From Agelaius tricolor (taxonomy: Eukaryota; Chordata; Aves; Passeriformes; Icteridae): a stretch of 64,000 nt of DNA. Positions 1-43,500 of the stretch are shown one piece after another. The notes beneath the pieces are model-generated. The model was not told the DNA's origin, did no database searches, and saw only the letters and a list, made by a program, of their open reading frames with translations. The position numbers and the translations under genes were made by a program. Every line of letters starts with the position of its first letter. Within the stretch, counting starts at the first letter, position 1. Where the stretch lies: NCBI GenBank assembly GCA_023055355.1, contig JALJCS010000038.1, positions 1,674,001 to 1,738,000 of the forward strand. The letters run 5' to 3'.

Positions 1-639
1 CCAGCTATTTGTTTTGTATTACTTTTATGTTTATTTTCCTCTTTCATTTCTCGTTTTCCCCTCCAACCCACTGCTCTAATCCCTGAAGCTCCCAGCTGAT
101 CTTTGCTACTGGAAATTAGGGAGGAAATTTGCTCGAAATTGCTACTGGAAATTTCCAGGCTTTTAGGTGAAATGCAGTCTGGCCCTTGGTGCTGGCATCC
201 ACCAGCCCGAAGTGTTGATGTGGGTTATTAGCACTGGATACCTCTCTGCAAATGTACCAGCCCCTGGAGAGGGGAGGTAGAGGGGAGGTGCCCAAGGAGG
301 GGAAGTGAGACAATGGGATTGTTAAAAATTGGTTGGAAACTGTACTGGGAGTGTGGTCCTGTTTTTAAGAGGATGGCCCCAAAGACAGGGAGAACCCCAA
401 GCCTGTGTTTGCCTTTCAAACCTTACCTGGCTGCTGTCAGGAGCAGCTCACCTGCACCCAGGCCAGCATGGAGAAGGATTCCAGCTGTGGGGATGTGACC
501 TGCAGCAGTGACAGCTCCTCTCTTCCTCTCCTCAGCCCTTGGCTCCTTGCTGCAGCTCCTCTGGCTCCAGGCTACTGCACACGGCGAGGGGATGCACTGA
601 GAGAGTCACTGAATTAAAGCAGATATTGCTTCTGCATCT
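1..639. other. Intergenic DNA, nothing recognised
   Basis: Ordinary GC-moderate sequence. Short open frames on both strands lack homology or splice context. Confidence 0.6.
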
Positions 640-817
640 CCCTTCCCTTCCCTTCCCTTCCCTTCCCTTCCCTTCCCTTCCCTTCCCTTCCCTTCCCTTC
701 CCTTCCCTTCCCTTCCCTTCCCTTCCCTTCCCTTCCCTTCCCTTCCCTTCCCTTCCCTTCCCTTCCCTTCCCTTCCCTTCCCTTCCCTTCCCTTCCCTTC
801 CCTTCCCTTCCCTTCCC
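640..817. repeat. (TTCCC)n microsatellite, about 36 copies
   Basis: A perfect run of CCCTT units, with GGGAA on the minus strand. It produces long proline/leucine/serine-rich and glycine-rich open frames on the two strands that are not genes. The complementary strand has a G3 run every five bases, a G-quadruplex-forming pattern. Confidence 0.98.
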
Positions 818-1045
818 TGGCAGCCCCCACCTCACAATCACGCCTGCTCTCCTAAGTTCAGCTCCAAATCCCCCAGCCCAGGTGAGCTGAGCCCAGGTGA
901 GCTGAGCCTTATCTGGGCTGGGACATCTCCCCCATCCTCTCTGGGAGCCCATGCTGAGGACAGTGGGTGTTTCCATGAGCAGCCTGCTGGGATAATAAAA
1001 CAAATAAACAGAAGAGTTACAGCCAAGGCACTTGGGGCACCATAA

Positions 1046-22863: not shown

Positions 22864-25566
22864 CTGCAAGGAAAAGGGAGAGAAAGTAAAGAAAACTGGA
22901 TATGGATGTTCCCCTTTGTCATTACTCTTGCCAAACAGGAGCAGCAAGGACAGAGGATGTGCTTTGGCCAGGCCCCAGTGAGGTGCAGGGTGATTTTATA
23001 AACACATGAGGATGACAAGGTCACTGGAGAGCTGAATTCCCACTTATTAATCATCTCTTTTCTAGTCAGTTAAGCAAATTCATTAATAGAAATTCCTGCC
23101 CTGTGAGCAGGAGGCATTTGCAGCTCCAGAGCTGTGAGGGGAGGCGAGTGCTGCAACGCCTCACATTTTTACTGGGATGTAATTGTTCCTCCTGGTGGTG
23201 CCTTCTCCAGCTGAGTGTTGGTTTGTCTCTTGCCATGACCATCTATCACCCCCTGCTGCACTCCCACTGCAGGCTGGGCTCTCCAGAGCTGAAGACAGAA
23301 GGACTCCCACATCCAGCTAATGAACTTCCTCTCTAATGCGATTTCAGGATCAATACTCACTGCTCATAAAAATACTGAGCCATTTTAAACCTGATTACAC
23401 TGATGACTACATAGATATAAAATAAATAAAAGGCCAGTAGTTGTGCTGTTTGTGAGGTCTCCAGGACGAGGTGAGAGATGAGAATCTGATTCCATGTTCT
23501 CAGAAGGCTGATTTATTATTTTATGGTATTATATTATATTAAAAGAATGCTATACTAAAACTATATTAAAGAAAGAGAAGGATACAAAGAATGAATAATA
23601 AAAACTAGTGACTGACTCAGAGAGCCCAACACAGCTGGCTGTAATTGGCCATTGATTAAAAACAATTCACATGTTTGGATAAACAATCTCCAGACTTCAT
23701 TCCAGAGCAGCAAAACATGGAGAAGCTGAGGCTTCTCACCTTCCCAGGAGAAGAAATCCTGGCAAAGGGATTTTTCAGAAAATATGACAGTAACAAGTAG
23801 TGCTGAACAACACAGGGTAAGTTCAGATGTTCCTTCACAAAGTTCCTGCCTCTGAAATGGGTTGTTCCCATCATCACACGCAGCAATGAGCATTGCATAA
23901 CCCAATTCCCCACTCAAGGAGATACACAACTAAAAAAACCCCAGACCAGCAGATTTATACTGTGAAGGATGCACATGAATCTTGTCATTTAAAGTCCTAT
24001 TGAATTACATCGATAAGAGAAAATTGTTCTCTAAAGAAGAGGTCAGCTGCATTTATTGAAACAAATCCTTCCATCTTCATCAGAGTCTTCTCTATAGCAA
24101 CCAAACCTTGGGCTGTCAATAACTCTCCTCCAGAAGAACTAGATCTTGTCTGGCTTGAGCAGTAAATATGGGGACAAGGGCAGCACAACTCTACAAGTAA
24201 ATTGCTGTTATTTACTTCAGCTTGGATGGGCTTTGCTTGCACTATTGAGAAATCGAATTTTCTGAGCCATAATACAAAAATAGGTAAATGAAGTTAAATT
24301 GTGCACTTTAGACATGTGTTGACAGAAAAGAAAGGAATGGGTTCTTCATTCCCATCAGAAAATTAGGGCTCCAGAAGATCCTGTCATGAGGATTGCACAA
24401 GTGACAGCTGAAAGGCCCAACATATTGACACTTGTGCTGGTTTTGCTTTTTTGGAAGCTTTGGTGTTTTCTCTGATCAATACAGCAGGGCCTTGGCTCAC
24501 ACAAACCACTTGTTCTACTCAACACTCATGTTCAGGACCATGTTGAACATGGATCTGACCAGTAATGGTTGCTTTCACCTTTCAAAACTGATTATTTTAA
24601 GATGCACTTTGCAAATCTCTCATCTTAGTGGCCTTTTTATTAAACAACCAATCCAGCACAGCAGGGAGGAGAGCCTGACTGCTCTGAAATTACACACTGG
24701 AAATTAAGGATGTAAAAGAACTGGTGCTAAATACTCCTAAAGACAGTGAATGGCAAAATGAGATTTATGTTTCCCAAAGTCTCAGCTGCATTGCTCCAGG
24801 TGAAGGGGCAACATAAAGGAAGGAAGTGGAGGAAAAAGCCTGAATTGTAAAGAAAATCTCCCCAAATCCTCCTCTGACTGCCAAAATTCATCTTGGTAGA
24901 AGGAATCCTGAATCTTAATTCCTTGTATTCACCCTCTGATCAACACGGGTGCTTCTTATGCAAGTTTATTTCACAAATAGGATTCTAAATACAAAAAGAA
25001 TTAAAGGGGATAAACTTAAATCTGTACATCAAGGTAGAATTGTATTGGATTAATTTTATTCAGTGAGAGAAGATCTGAATACTCCAGTGTTTCCTTGCTT
25101 CTCCAAACACCAAAGTTTGGATACAAAATGGAACCTTCTGTAAATAATGCCCATCCCTTCCCATACTGGGCAAGCTCCTCAGCTGGATTACTAATTTGGG
25201 GAATTTCAATTTCTTCTTACCAGGGAAGCAGATTTTGTACATGCAGAACTTGCACAGCAGGAACTGTCCAAGGGCTGGCCCAAAGGACAGAGTTTGGTTG
25301 AGGGAGTTTTTTCCTCCTGTTCTGACCTTTGCAGACAGGAATCATCAGGCCAATAGTGAGACCTGGACAGAAGAGCCATTCCCAGCTCAGTTTTCCAACA
25401 CCAGTTCCCCCAGGGAAATGGGAATGGGCTCTTCACCCCTGTCCAGGTAGGAGACACAGAGAATCCCAGTCTCTGGGGGAATTCCAACTGCATCAGAACT
25501 GCCTGTGTCACTCACTGCCAACACACTCAAACTGGGCTGGAAAAAGGTGTTTTCCAACAGACTTAC
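22864..25566 (-). other. MED27: MED27 last intron (2703 bp)
   Basis: This intron lies between the penultimate and terminal coding exons. It has canonical GTAAGT and GCAG ends and carries one solo LTR (23442-23795). No other gene or clear element was recognised in the rest. Confidence 0.9.
23442..23795 (-). mobile_element. Solo LTR (short family, copy 3), 354 bp
   Basis: Reverse-oriented copy, in LTR sense starting TGTTACTGTC and ending in CA. It is flanked by a perfect 6-bp duplication, AGTAGT, at 23436-23441 and 23796-23801. It shares the AT-rich TATATTAAA core and the CCCAGGAGAAGAAATCCTGG block with the copies at 13545 and 38927. It lies in the last MED27 intron, in the same orientation as the gene, so any LTR promoter or polyadenylation signal would face the sense direction. 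No internal viral genes. Confidence 0.88.
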
Positions 25567-32723: not shown

Positions 32724-32765
32724 CTTCTGAAAAACTTGATAGTTGGATTTAGACCATATGTCAAG
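32724..32765 (-). CDS. MED27: MED27 short coding exon (42 nt)
   Basis: A 14-codon exon reading LDIWSKSNYQVFQK, between acceptor TTCCTACTGTAG and donor GTAAG. Phase is 0 at both ends. The peptide follows TEDGK from the upstream exon and precedes VTDHATTALL in the next, exactly as in vertebrate MED27 (about residues 228-241). The exon is too short to be found by ORF length and depends on splice sites and homology. Because 42 is a multiple of three, skipping it would keep the frame and remove 14 residues. Confidence 0.95.
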
Positions 32766-37190: not shown

Positions 37191-38926
37191 TCAAATGAAA
37201 TGTTCCTATTTATACCTAAAACAGAGACCTTCAAGTTTGCAAAATCTCTGGGATGCCCACTGGAATAGCAAAGTGCCACGTAAAGGTCACAGGTTGGTGC
37301 ATCCTTGCAGGAGCAGTGACAGAGCCCAGGGTTGGACACAAAGCTAAATGAGTAGAGAACAGACTCCCCTGCAGACTGGCTTAAAGCAAGAAATAAGCCA
37401 GGTGTTAACAGCAATGCTCTGGAGGAGCAGAACTGCTCCCTCCTGACAGCAGGCAAAGGTTAGTGCCCTGTGCCCAGAGCTGGCCTTGGCAAGCCCTGCT
37501 GTCCCCTGGCAGCAAACGATGGCAGAGGAACAATGTGCAGCTCCCAGGAGAGTTCACCTTGAGCTGAACAGAATCCCAGTGCCAGATGCTGAGTTTCAGA
37601 AAGGAACTCCTTACTTAGCTTTTCAGCATATATAGCATTATTGTATTTCAAGGGAGCTTCAAAGGAAACTGGATTCATCAGAGAAAACGAGCACACCCAA
37701 ATGAAGTGTGACATGGGAATCCATCACACACTCTCAGTGCTCTCTCAGCAGACCATCATTTCACTTCCATGCAGAACTTGGGGTGAAGAGGGGCTGCTGC
37801 TGGAGCTCTGTATTTATATGCAAATATACAGGGACTAGAGAGCAGCTGCTTCTGTGGCAAACTGGTATTTAAACCTGCCTATCTGAAAAAGGCAAATTAA
37901 AATTAAGCAATTTTTATTTTACTACTTCTTAGGCCAATCCTCCGCCCTTTGAGGAAGAATGTCTCACCTGGAAAATGGAGCTGCACTGTTTCCTTCAGCA
38001 GCTCAGCTCCTGGCCTTTCCCAGAGAACAGAGGTTCAGACTCAGAGCTGCTGAACTCTGGGTCAGCACACAACGTGCTTCTGTGTGCTGAAACACAGTTA
38101 TCACTTCTGAAAGGAAAAGAAGTCTCACCTCATTATAACATGGCCTATGGGTGCCAAATATTCATCTTGATATAATGAACTTCTTATTTTAATAGGCTTC
38201 ATAATCAGAAGAGAAAGCTCCAGAGACAATGTGAAACATGGAGGTATTCAGTGCTGTTACTGGAATGGAGAGTCCTGGTGGATGTCTCAGGAACAGAGAC
38301 CCTTCCACCCTGGAAAGAGACCTGAGCTGAGCTAAGGCCATCAGGTCCTGTTAACATCTCCTGATGTGCTGAGGAGAGCCAGATGGAGAGTGTGCAGGCA
38401 CAGGAAATCTCAGGGTTCAAGCAGGGTGAGCTGTTCACAAAATAAATCACTTGTGGAAACAGGTAACACTTGCTGTAGTAGCTGCTGTTCAAGATGTGCT
38501 GCTGCTGGCAAGCAAATTCTTGAGGAGCACCTACCAATGATCCTCTCTGTTGTGTTTATCAAGCCAAAAAAAACCAGCCCAAGATTTCTCAATGGCTCTC
38601 AGAAGAGTGAAAGCTGAACCTTGGGCTGTTGATGTGCTGGTACACTGCAAAAATGTTTTCTCAGCAGACGCTATGAACACAGCAACTGAGGTCTAAGGTG
38701 ATAAATCAGAAATTCAAGCAAAGGCTTCAGAGCTTAGAAAGAACTCAGAGATAGGGGGATGCAAAACCTAAGCAAAACAGGACAGATTTAAACTGGAACA
38801 CTGTGCAAACATTCTAAGTCTTTTTCCAGTTTTGCATTTCCAGTGTGCCTGCAGTGGGATCCCAGTTTTCTGCCATGAAAACAGATGGAAATGAAGTGCA
38901 GTGCTGCTGGAGAGGCTGTGACCTAT

Positions 38927-39965
38927 TGTACCTGCAGAGCCCCTCGTGGCAGGAAGGAATGATGAATCTGACTCCATGTTCTTGAAGGCTAATTTATTAT
39001 TTTATGATACTATATTATATTAAAGAATGCTATACTAAAACTATACTAAAGAATACAGAAAGGATACTTACACAATGCTAAAAAGATAATAATGAAAATT
39101 CATGACTCTCTCCAGAGTTCTGACACAGCTTGGCACTGATTGGCCAAAGAGTGAAAACAACCCACAGCAGAAACCAACAAAACAATCACCTGTGAGTAAA
39201 CAATCTCACATTCCTCATGTGAGCACAACACAGGAGAAGCAAATGAGGTAAGAATTTGTTTTCCTTTCTCTCTGAGGCTTCTCAGCTTCTCAGCTTCCCA
39301 GGAGAAAAATCCTGGGTGAAGGGTGTTGGGGAAGATGGAACAGGAAAGCCTTATAAATATGATTGCCTGGCACAAGATTTTGAGAATATGGAAACTATAA
39401 GCGAGATTGAAATGAAAGCAAGCTTTGAGATCCCTCAGTTACTGAACAAGTGGAAAACAATGGTGTGGCTGCTGAAGGTGATCCCCTTTTGATGGAACAA
39501 CACCCTCTGCTTGCAGACAGGCCCAAGGGTCAGAGCAGACCCTGCCAGCTTGGCAGAAGGGCCAAAAGAGGAGTTTGTAGGGTTTAAAATGTAACCCAGT
39601 ATGGTAATGTAGTGATTCTTATAGGCTGTATGGAAATGCTATAAGATTTGTATCTTGTACTAGATTGGTCAGTGAGAATTAGAATACTCAACACAGAAGA
39701 AGATTTATTGTATTGTAACGGGAACCTTGCTCTCTTATCCTCTTCTACTCTTTACCTCTTTTACTCTCTCATCCTTTTTACCACATTCTTGCCTTCTCTC
39801 TCTTTACTTCTCTGTGGCTGGCAGCTCCCAGCAGGGCCCTGCACCCAGGCCCTTTGCAATAAACCCCAAGTTCCACCACCTGGCTTTAGAGATCTCTTGT
39901 CTCCGTCCATCCCCACCATCCTACCCCTCGTCACCTCTACAGAAGGGAATTTTCAGAGGATGTGA
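38927..39965 (-). mobile_element. Solo LTR (short passerine-type family, copy 4), split by a younger LTR
   Basis: The segments 38927-39323 and 39942-39965 align, in reverse orientation, with the LTRs at 8751, 13545 and 23442. Shared blocks are GACTCCATGTTC, the AT-rich TATATTAAAGAATGCTATAC tract, a CAGCTTCCCAGGAG block and the terminal AAGGGAATTTTCAGAGGATG. The two parts are separated by the 618-bp LTR at 39324. The outer end of the second part merges into the minisatellite, so its terminal bases and target duplication cannot be fixed. Confidence 0.82.
39324..39941 (+). mobile_element. Solo LTR, 618 bp, nested in an older LTR, with perfect 6-bp target duplication
   Basis: Begins TGTTGGGG and ends CTCTACA, flanked by GAAGGG at 39318-39323 and 39942-39947. 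An AATAAA signal sits at 39858-39863, consistent with plus orientation. TG...CA ends with a 6-bp duplication are typical of class II (ERVK-like) endogenous retroviruses. No gag, pol or env reading frame is present. A 54-residue open stretch near its left side is part of the LTR and is not called as a gene. The family name is not assigned. Confidence 0.85.
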
Positions 39966-40460
39966 GTGCCCCAGTGCCCCACCTTGTGAATGGCACAGTG
40001 CTCCACCTTGTGAATGCCCCACCTTATGAGTGCCCCAGTGTCCCAACCTGTGAGTGCCCCATCCTGTGAGTGCCCCAGTGTCCCATCCTGTGAGTGCCCC
40101 AGTGTCCCATCCTGTGAGTGCCCCAGTGTCCCATCCTGTGAGTGTCCCATCCTGTGAGTGCCCCAGTGTCCCATCCTGTGAGTGCCCCATCCTGTGAGTG
40201 CCCCAGTGTCCCATCCTGTGAGTGCCCCATCCTGTGAGTGCCCCAGCGTCCCACCCTGTGAGTGCCCCATCCTGTGAGTGCCCCAGTGTCCCATCCTGTG
40301 AGTGCCCCAGTGTCCCATCCTGTGAGTGCCCCACCCTGTGAGTGCCCCATCCTGTGAGTGCCCCATCCTGTGAGTGTCCCACCCTGTGAGTGTCCCATCC
40401 TGTGAGTGCCCCATCCTGTGAGTGCCCCACCCTGTCAGTGTCCCATCCTGTGAGTGCCCC
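39961..40460. repeat. Minisatellite, 16/24-bp units, about 26 copies, at the MED27 splice donor
   Basis: Tandem array in which TGAGTGCCCC followed by ATCCTG makes a 16-bp unit, and an extra CAGTGTCC makes a 24-bp unit. I count about 26 TGAGTG/TGAATG starts. The leftmost units are the most diverged (GTGAATGGCACAG and similar). The right end touches the MED27 exon at 40463. Read on the minus strand, the 16-bp unit cycles through all three frames as a 16-residue period (QDGALTGWGTHRMGHS) with no stops. This explains three overlapping long open frames that are not genes. Confidence 0.97.
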
Positions 40461-40462
40461 AC

Positions 40463-40570
40463 CTTGCCATCCTCGGTGTAGACGTTCTCGCTGTAGCCCT
40501 TGACGATGGTGCGGTCGATGAAGAGGCTCCGCATCACCACGATCACCTTCAGCACCTTCCCCAAGGTCAC
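40463..40570 (-). CDS. MED27: MED27 coding exon, abutting a minisatellite
   Basis: A 108-nt, 36-codon exon with phase 0 at both ends. It begins VTLGKVLKVIVVMRSLFIDR and ends NVYTEDGK, matching about residues 192-227 of vertebrate MED27. The acceptor is CTGCTCTCCCCAG. The donor is AAG|GTGGGG, which lacks the A at +4 and differs from the GTAAG donors of the neighbouring exons. The donor lies directly in the first unit of a ~500-bp minisatellite that fills the start of the intron. Reading on past the donor in the same frame meets no stop until 39953, so a retained intron would add about 170 repetitive residues. Orthologue comparison would tell whether the donor was replaced by the repeat. Confidence 0.97.
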
Positions 40571-43500
40571 CTGGGGAGAGCAGGACAGGGACACAAACGA
40601 GCTGAGGGTGAGCTGATGGGGTCTGAATTCGTAAGACCAGCGAGTTAACAGCTTAAGTTGATGCAATTTTAGTTTTCAATATTTTATAGAGAGACCAAAA
40701 TAAAAGATCCAAAAGCAGTGTAGTGTTATGAGGAGGAGAGATAGCATAAAGTGCAGAACAAACAAACATTCATTTGCAACTGAAAATGTATGAGTTCACA
40801 GAATTCCCTTGTGCAGACATGACACTGCCAAGCAATTCTCTCCATTTTATTAACACCACAACTCAATAACTTGTCAAAAACAATGGGCAAATGTGATTAT
40901 TTTCGATGAATTTGATATTCTCCAATATAAGTCCACTTAGAGAAAAACAATTTGAAAGAGGAATCGGACTCTCCTAATGCTAGCTTGTAAAAGCATACCA
41001 TGAGTTTAATGGAAAACATTTTCTGTCCAATAAAAATGTAAAATTATTTCAAAGGAAACTACAGCTTAAAGTAAAAATGTTACATTTTCAAAGGTTTCAT
41101 TTCCTTCTGTGAAAGTGTTAAAGTGCAAAGAATAAAACTAGTATAATGGAAAATACAGAGGGTCAGTCAGAATATAACAACAGAAACAAGCCTAAATTAT
41201 ATTATTGACAAAAATGCAATAATGAAGGCATTTTAATCTAAAAATCAATTTACATTTCAAAGATGAAGTTGTACTTCAATACAGTTAAGATGTGTGTCTA
41301 ACAAGGATCTTGTCTTTGTATTTTGTTATGCAGAGATTATTAGAGAGTTTTTCCTCACCCACAAAAGCATAAAACTGAGATAAAAAAGAAACAATTAGCT
41401 CATTTTAATATTTCCCAACCAGCAGCAGCTCATTTTCTGCCAGTGTTCCAACATTTCATCCTGTATAGATTAACACCCACTAAAACAAATGTGTTTTTAC
41501 TGCTGACCTCAGCAGACAAATCCACACCTAAAGAAACCAGTCAATATGCACCTTTATTGATCTGTTGGATGTTATTCCTTTGTAACTTCTGTTAATGACT
41601 GCTGCCCATCACCTTGTTCCAACAGCAGCAGCCCCTGCCTGAGCTGATTTAATCAGTACAGAGCAGGACAGAGCCACAAACCCTGGACAGAACTGATACC
41701 AAACCTTTGGCACAGAACAGGGAGAACTCCAGCAGGAAAGAGTTTGAACAACAGGGCAGGACAAATTCACAGCAAGAGAAAAGGCAGGGGCACAGGAAGG
41801 GAAGACAATGACAGCCATCGAGCAGACAGGCTGCCAGGCATAATGCTGCAAGAACATAAAAAGTGGATCAGAAGAATGGGTGATTTGTGAAGGAAAAAAT
41901 GTGAAAGGCTGAAGGACAGGAAGCTGTATCAGGGCCTGAGCCATGCACACACCAGGAACCATGAACATGTATGGAAACACCACGTTGTGCTGTCAGGTGC
42001 TGGGAATTTTGGTTTAAATGCAGTATCTTGCCAGGGTACTCTTAAACAAGGTCTAGTTGGTCCTCATATACAAAAAACTGGCAGAGTTATTTCAGCACCT
42101 GGCACTCTATTAATTAAGTTAAAAATGCAAAGTCATTACCCAGAGGTGCCTAAGCTATGATGCTGATCACCCACTGGAATCACAGAGTTTTGTCATAATT
42201 GCTAAGAGGAGGAAATGAGTAAACTTTGAGAAAAGTTGCCAGCACATTAAGAGTTAACAGTTTTCAATTTATTTTTCTGCATTATTAAAACTGGCACTTC
42301 AGTGGGATATTGGTCTGCTGAGAGAACAGACTCTTATTTATAACTTCACACTAGGCATCAACCATACATAACAAAATGAAAAGGAGGAAAAGGAGACATT
42401 TTAAAGCAAAAGAAATCTTAATGGAAGAAGGATAAGGCTGCCCTACAAACACCCAGACCCAGCTTTCTGTATAATATTTCCTATCCCCATTGCCTTCACA
42501 CACTTTAGTTGATGCTCCCTTCTTTCCTCTTTCTCTTTCCATTGTGCATTCACAGCACCTCCCATTGCTGCCAGGTAGAAATAAATCTGAGGTTGATCTG
42601 AAGCTTGTGTGGGATGTTCCTGAAAATCCTCAGAGTGAACAGTGGAACATAATACAGTGAAAAATCCTGTGTGTGGCACTCCAGCTTGCTGGAATGAACT
42701 CACTGCTGGCCTCAAACCTCCTCCCCACCTGCACAGATGTTCCTGCATTAGCTCCCTGCCCTTTCCAGGTGATCTGACTTCACACCTTTCCAGTGGTTCA
42801 CTCCCCACTTCCAGAATCCATCACAGCACTGAAATGTCACATCCTGCACAATGTCCAGAACAGGACCTTGATCAGCCCCTTGCCTGACCACAGAAATTCA
42901 AAATTCCTGTCTCCCACATGTGTAAGGAGCTGTGGAAACCCAGCTGTAGCTGGGTACCTCAGTGAGCTCCCTGAGAAAGGTCCTACAGCTGCACTCCCCC
43001 TTTACAGGGGCACCCAGGAAATCCAAACTTGGGCTGGGTTGGTGCTGGGTTGTCTGAATTAGCTTTTACAGTGCTCTGGTACTGAAACAAAAAACTTCCC
43101 TCTTTTGTACCACTCTTGTTTTGACGAGAGATTCCTGCAGATTTTACTCTGGCTGGGAGAGAGATCGAGACATGGAGATGATTTCTGTAGGACTGTATCA
43201 TTAGTCAAGTCTGACAGAAGCAGGAATTTTGTAAAAGAGCAGCTCAGAGAAATTACAGTTCATCCTTTTGAGAGCACTGAAAGAATGAGGGTAGTAGTAC
43301 AAAGAATGAACAACAGCCTGTCACCAGACTGGAGGATGCTGTGAGACGTGGAAGCCACAACTCTGCTGCACAGCTATTTTCAGGGTGAAGCACATTCCAT
43401 ATTGTACACACAGCAAATGCAATAGCCTTTCTTTTTTTCCTCCAGTAATCAAGATTCATAACTATTTCCAGGGCTTAATGTTTTTGTTCAACTCTGCTGT

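What the first reader, a model, noticed from the sequence alone, without database searches (positions are those of the whole stretch)
40445..40475. MED27 splice donor embedded in the first unit of a minisatellite
The donor of the VTLGK exon is AAG|GTGGGG. The three other internal MED27 donors seen here (50755, 32723, 25566) are GTAAG. The bases after the donor (GTGGGGCACTCACAGG on the minus strand) are simply a repeat unit, so the array has expanded up to the exon edge and probably replaced the ancestral intron start. Several array units carry the same GTGGGG (for example AAGGTGGGG near 40013-40024), giving decoy donors in cis.
Basis: partly seen in the sequence, partly recalled or inferred. 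Interest (0 to 1): 0.78.

Follow-up and report, generated by a model that had tools for sequence, protein, structure and literature searches.

The report
Repeat array built from splice junction
In this bird's MED27 gene a retroviral LTR appears to have landed about nine bases into an intron, and the junction it made (end of exon, splice signal, end of LTR) was then copied in tandem into an array that still begins with the gene's own, naturally unusual splice signal.

Summary
Observation confirmed: the MED27 exon 40570-40463 (minus) ends AAG|GTGGGG, its intron begins inside a 16/24-bp array, and the three other donors named are GTAAG. Interpretation half right. The array touches the exon but did not replace the ancestral donor: seven bird-type ORFs that read through this donor (two named, Egretta and Bubo) show EDGK|VG, i.e. 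GTNGGN, without array. The old intron start survives 1.5 kb away (38923-38741; E 4e-16 to a bird ORF). Between lie an LTR (38924-39973, split by a 618-bp element with a GAAGGG duplication) and the array. Other genomic copies of the LTR fix its ends and a 6-bp target duplication; here it sits after intron base +9. The two LTR-proximal 24-bp units read LTR end, target duplication, donor, exon CAAG: 21/24 to an independently predicted junction, 0 of 1000 shuffles as good. So the array was copied from the native junction, and the exact AAG|GTGGGG decoys (40022, 39982) are copies of it. Donor-embedding VNTRs are known (human ABCA7, CBS); the readable LTR-junction founder is new to me. No RNA evidence was available.

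The parts
40463..40570 (-). MED27 exon VTLGK..TEDGK (108 nt)
   Evidence: 1 match in the own genome
40457..40462 (-). 5' splice site, intron bases +1..+6, GTGGGG (exon end AAG)
40454..40462 (-). native intron bases +1..+9 left on the exon side, GTGGGGCAC (or a unit that cannot be told from them)
39974..40462 (-). minisatellite of 16-nt and 8+16 = 24-nt units; 39 sense-strand runs of three or more G between the donor and 39942
39963..39986 (+). LTR-proximal 24-bp founder-type unit: LTR end TGAGTGCCCCA, target duplication GTGCCC, donor copy CAC, exon copy CTTG
   Evidence: 21 of 24 to the predicted junction
39987..40010 (+). second 24-bp unit TGAATGGCACA GTGCTC CAC CTTG
   Evidence: 21 of 24
40017..40025 (-). 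decoy donor AAG|GTGGGG (GT at 40022), +440
39977..39985 (-). decoy donor AAG|GTGGGG (GT at 39982), +480, in frame with the exon; that frame is open to 39953
38924..39323 (+). LTR, first piece (TATTGTACC...); direction of transcription not determined
39324..39941 (+). nested 618-bp insert with TG...CA ends, flanked by GAAGGG at 39318-39323 and 39942-39947
   Evidence: its family could not be searched
39942..39973 (+). LTR, last piece (GAAGGGAATTTTCAGAGGATGTGAGTGCCCCA)
38918..38923 (+). target-site duplication, displaced copy GTGACC (sense GGTCAC = ancestral intron +4..+9)
39974..39979 (+). target-site duplication as kept in the LTR-proximal unit, GTGCCC (5 of 6)
38741..38923 (-). displaced ancestral start of the intron, from +4 on
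   Evidence: tblastn of the intron part of bird-type ORF P0070, E 3.9e-16
32724..32765 (-). next MED27 exon, 42 nt (LDIWSKSNYQVFQK), absent from 23 listed proteins of other vertebrates

Best explanation
The donor is the gene's own old donor, of an unusual bird form (GTNGG). An LTR with a 6-bp target duplication integrated after intron base +9, leaving the donor next to the exon and pushing the rest of the intron away. A 24-bp segment spanning LTR end (11 nt), intron +9..+1 (9 nt) and the last 4 exon bases was duplicated in tandem; loss of an 8-bp direct repeat (TGGGGCAC) inside it gave the 16-bp unit, and both forms grew to about 490 bp. At some time another element split the LTR. Shown: displaced intron, LTR ends and family duplication, composition and order of the LTR-proximal units, decoys. 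Inferred: order of the steps, the 24-to-16 contraction, and that the first GT is still the donor used (it is the one that keeps the MED27 protein unchanged; G-runs behind it may help a weak site).
For: Displaced intron: the intron part of bird-type ORF P0070 matches window minus 38926-38741 from its first residue, E 3.9e-16, next best 0.09; P0069 E 1.5e-11; P0068 E 3.8e-4. Exon, +1..+9 and 38917 onward read as one frame collinear with 7 of 7 bird-type ORFs across the junction (P0070 131 bits); the sequence as it stands stops aligning at the donor (P0070 76 bits). P0070's upstream intron matches too (E 1.5e-16 and 5e-16). LTR: 42 other genome matches (lower bound), 9 starting at 38927 and 36 ending at 39323, the nested insert's edge; of 20 copies fetched 18 had both ends, 14 a perfect 6-bp duplication, against 2 of 306 mismatched flank pairs, shifts of 3 allowed in both. 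Units 39963-39986 and 39987-40010 each match at 21 of 24 the junction predicted from other LTR copies, displaced duplication and exon; best of 1000 shuffles of the array 19; look-alike array L037 15.
Against: The MED27 duplication matches at 5 of 6, and 61 of 306 mismatched pairs do that well with free shifts. With each of the 18 LTR copies' own end the unit score is 18 to 21, not always 21. An array elsewhere (L046) carries the word TGTGAATGCCACA with no LTR match beside it, so that word alone is no proof. P0067 and P0058 alone do not find the displaced site significantly (ranks 4 and 8). Five of seven bird assignments rest on intron similarity. The exon-adjacent unit is a plain 16-mer, so native +1..+9 cannot be told from a unit slid up to the exon. 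No transcript data.
Confidence: 0.84

Rival explanations
1. One reading: an array expanded up to the exon and overwrote a canonical donor, which was re-supplied by the repeat.
For: The intron begins with a repeat unit, and this donor scores lowest of the four read here (4.6 against 5.4, 6.5 and 8.5, recalled human frequencies).
Against: Bird-type ORFs without array already have GTNGGN; the old intron is displaced intact from +4; units carry exon and LTR bases.
Confidence: 0.06
2. The array existed at the donor first (tandem copies of exon end plus intron start) and the LTR inserted into its far end.
For: Arrays with no match to this LTR lie next to exon-like ORFs elsewhere in the genome (L037, L046).
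Against: No array copy on the displaced side; unit 39987-40010 carries TGAATGGCACA, 10 of 11 to the end of other LTR copies.
Confidence: 0.08
3. The array regulates splicing: G-runs strengthen the donor, and decoys or array length change skipping of the next 42-nt exon.
For: 39 sense-strand G-runs and two exact decoys, one in an open frame; the next exon is absent from 23 listed proteins of other vertebrates; ABCA7 precedent.
Against: No RNA evidence; whether any species with such isoforms has the array is unknown; the insertion may be neutral.
Confidence: 0.25
4. Assembly artefact at the intron start.
For: Arrays are prone to misassembly; copy number may be off.
Against: Both array edges, the LTR and the displaced intron fit one history; exon has 1 match; 214 contigs for 1.16 Gb.
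Confidence: 0.03

Closest known systems
ABCA7 intron 18 VNTR (human; PMC5954066, passages seen)
   Same: Array immediately flanks an exon and its first two bases are the GT of the donor; the paper reports use of a cryptic donor one unit on and skipping of the next exon, with splicing affected by VNTR length.
   Different: 25-bp unit, no LTR origin in the passages seen; splicing measured there, untested here.
CBS VNTR c.1444_1467+7(16_21) (human; PMC2630376, passages seen)
   Same: By its name the unit spans the exon/intron border (24 exon + 7 intron bases).
   Different: 31-bp unit, mostly exonic; the founder-type unit here has 4 exon, 9 intron and 11 LTR bases.
TE-derived minisatellites (PMC3389668, passages; PMC9659126, passages)
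   Same: Tandem array grown from transposon sequence.
   Different: Here the unit spans element end, target duplication and host exon, and the host part is a splice site.
Introners (PMC9860276, passages)
   Same: Transposon insertion whose target duplication lies at a splice site.
   Different: Introners create introns; here an existing intron was entered.

Membership tests
Donor-embedding VNTR (ABCA7/CBS kind) | First unit contains the exon's 5' splice site | tested here: met
Donor-embedding VNTR (ABCA7/CBS kind) | Further units carry donor-like copies | tested here: met
   2 exact 9-mers and 4 weaker GT units; most units have no GT
Donor-embedding VNTR (ABCA7/CBS kind) | Copy number varies between individuals | not testable with these tools
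   one assembly only
Donor-embedding VNTR (ABCA7/CBS kind) | Array changes splicing | not testable with these tools
   no RNA data held
LTR insertion with 6-bp target duplication | Ends shared with other genomic copies | tested here: met
LTR insertion with 6-bp target duplication | 6-bp duplication at this locus | tested here: inconclusive
   GTGACC/GTGCCC, 5 of 6; family 14 of 18 perfect, controls 61 of 306 with at most one mismatch
Introner | Creates a new intron inside coding sequence | tested here: not met
   in many other vertebrate ORFs non-coding sequence also starts right after EDGK (59 VS, 14 VG rows of 189), so the intron position is shared

The most novel reading that the evidence does not exclude
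LTR insertion close behind a donor, followed by tandem copying of the exon-donor-LTR junction, is a route by which vertebrate genes acquire donor-bearing minisatellites; here the array, by its length, tunes inclusion of the next 42-nt MED27 exon.
Probability: 0.15. Interest if true: 0.65.

Novelty: new variant of a known kind. Interest (0 to 1): 0.48.

Why it matters
Donor-embedding VNTRs matter in human disease (ABCA7), but how they start is mostly unknown: PMC3389668 (passages) says that postulated mechanisms explain only 6% of TE-derived arrays. Here the founder-type unit can be split base by base into exon, splice site, target duplication and LTR, so the origin of such an array becomes directly testable in related birds.

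Tried and rejected
Rejected: replacement of a canonical donor. My own first idea, that the LTR began at 38927 and the target duplication was the donor hexamer itself (note): the genomic copies show that the LTR begins three bases earlier, so the duplication is +4..+9. Recurrence of LTR-end arrays: the one scan answered gave 8 matches, all at one locus (L046 region), where no LTR match was found; a wider scan never ran. Viral-contig scan for the unit: 0 matches. A tblastn with an invalid option returned nothing and was redone. In one search two of the four 'other donor' entries were shifted by one base; scores quoted come from the 9-mers listed at the end of that call. Papers: ten searches ran; listings were seen for all, passages for five papers, none read whole. 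In one search none of the 8 papers listed (of 5,722 holding two terms) held MED27. Of 189 proteins read after the exon, 65 continue LD and 23 VTDH and say nothing about the intron. The second and third protein searches listed only the best 120 of 204 and of 281.

Full report
What is there. On the minus strand the exon 40570-40463 encodes VTLGKVLKVIVVMRSLFIDRTIVKGYSENVYTEDGK and matches human MED27 192-227. Its neighbours follow along the MED27 protein. The intron starts GTGGGGCACTCACAGG, the first 16-nt unit of an array; three other donors in the window are GTAAG. The exon has one match in the 1.16-Gb own genome.

What other genomes show. A protein search with the exon plus its read-through frame returned ORFs from assembled public contigs that run from this exon into the intron (searches list only the best 120). 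After the exon end 189 proteins were read: 65 continue LD (spliced), 23 VTDH (spliced, next exon absent), 59 VS, 14 VG, 28 others. Seven of the VG rows are birds or bird-like: Egretta garzetta (P0075), Bubo bubo (P0076) and five unnamed contigs (P0058, P0067-P0070) assigned by their intron peptides, so that for those five the assignment is not independent of the intron. All seven read GTNGGN and none has the array. The bird donor was therefore unusual at +4 without any array; bases +3 and +6 are not fixed by protein. Contigs that I could not assign may hide birds with another donor.

Where the old intron went. The intron peptide of P0070 matches window minus 38926-38741 from its first residue (E 3.9e-16; next best 0.09), P0069 the same place (E 1.5e-11), P0068 (E 3.8e-4); P0067 and P0058 alone are not significant. 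P0070's upstream intron matches 40765-40571 and 40850-40737 (E 1.5e-16 and 5e-16). Exon, +1..+9, then 38917 onward reads as one frame collinear with all seven bird-type ORFs across the junction, with one stop further down; the sequence as it stands stops aligning at the donor. So about 1.5 kb came in nine bases into the intron.

What was inserted. The insert holds an LTR with three related copies in the window (72-77% in the pieces aligned) and many in the genome (42 others scored, a lower bound; 9 start at 38927, 36 end at 39323). Twenty copies with flanks show that it starts TATTGTATTTG-like and ends TGTGAATGCCACA-like with a 6-bp duplication: 18 had both ends recognised, 14 a perfect duplication, 15 at most one mismatch; mismatched pairs of flanks gave 2 and 61 of 306. 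At MED27 the ends are 38924 and 39973 and the flanks GTGACC and GTGCCC (5 of 6). The LTR is split at 39323/39942 by a 618-bp insert with TG...CA ends and a perfect GAAGGG duplication; its family could not be searched.

What the array is made of. From the LTR outward (plus strand) the first two units read TGAGTGCCCCA-GTGCCC-CAC-CTTG and TGAATGGCACA-GTGCTC-CAC-CTTG: LTR end, target duplication, donor, exon end. A 24-mer predicted only from outside sources (LTR end as read in six other copies, displaced duplication, exon) matches both at 21 of 24; with each of 18 copies' own end the scores are 18 to 21; the best of 1000 dinucleotide shuffles of the array reached 19 (once), and the look-alike array L037 15. 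Toward the exon, units are 16 nt or 24 nt (8+16). The founder-type unit holds the direct repeat TGGGGCAC TGGGGCAC; its contraction would turn 24 into 16, which is inference. Against over-reading the LTR word: an array at L046 carries TGTGAATGCCACA with no LTR match beside it.

How it works. The donor beside the exon scores below the other three with recalled human frequencies (4.6 against 5.4, 6.5, 8.5), yet at the 98.9th percentile of 3355 GT sites on this strand of the window. Exact copies AAG|GTGGGG lie at +440 and +480; the +480 one is in frame and the exon frame is open to 39953. Elsewhere in the insert CAG|GTGATT at 39189 scores nearly as high (4.4). Thirty-nine G-runs follow the donor; that such runs can help weak donors is recalled, not tested. 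The next exon is only 42 nt and is absent from 23 listed proteins of other vertebrates, so it is the natural read-out if the array acts as the ABCA7 VNTR does. None of this is shown at RNA level.

Comparison. The human ABCA7 VNTR begins with the donor GT and affects splicing (PMC5954066, passages); the CBS VNTR spans an exon/intron border (PMC2630376, passages). This locus belongs to that kind by structure; variability and splicing effect are untested. New, as far as ten paper searches and passages of five papers show, is a founder-type unit in which exon, donor, target duplication and LTR end can be read.

Noticed in passing
L037 2293-3561 (G000:C37:3131792-3133060): A 16-bp array of about 80 copies, GGTCACTCACAGGAAG, close to the window's unit, lies just before an exon-like ORF resembling a voltage-gated calcium channel (name recalled, not searched); no match to the LTR body there.
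   Followed up: partly
L046 685-1344 (G000:C29:7047384-7048043): A 28-bp array whose units often contain TGTGAATGCCACA starts within about 10 nt of a donor-like CTGCAG|GTACCC (exon-like ORF SLETQYLKHRLQ); no LTR match. Exon-hugging arrays may be frequent in this genome; no rate was measured.
   Followed up: partly
window 23442-23795, 14006-13545, 9145-8753: Three further related LTR copies with 6-bp duplications AGTAGT/AGTAGT, AATCAG/AACCAG, CACCTC/CACCTC, ends read by eye.
   Followed up: partly
window 32765-32724 (minus): 42-nt MED27 exon LDIWSKSNYQVFQK is missing in frame from 23 listed proteins (birds, bats, a seal, reptiles, amphibians).
   Followed up: no
window 39953-40675 (minus): The exon frame stays open through the whole array (240 codons stop to stop).
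   Followed up: partly
window 639-818: Perfect 36-copy TCCCT pentamer array.
   Followed up: no
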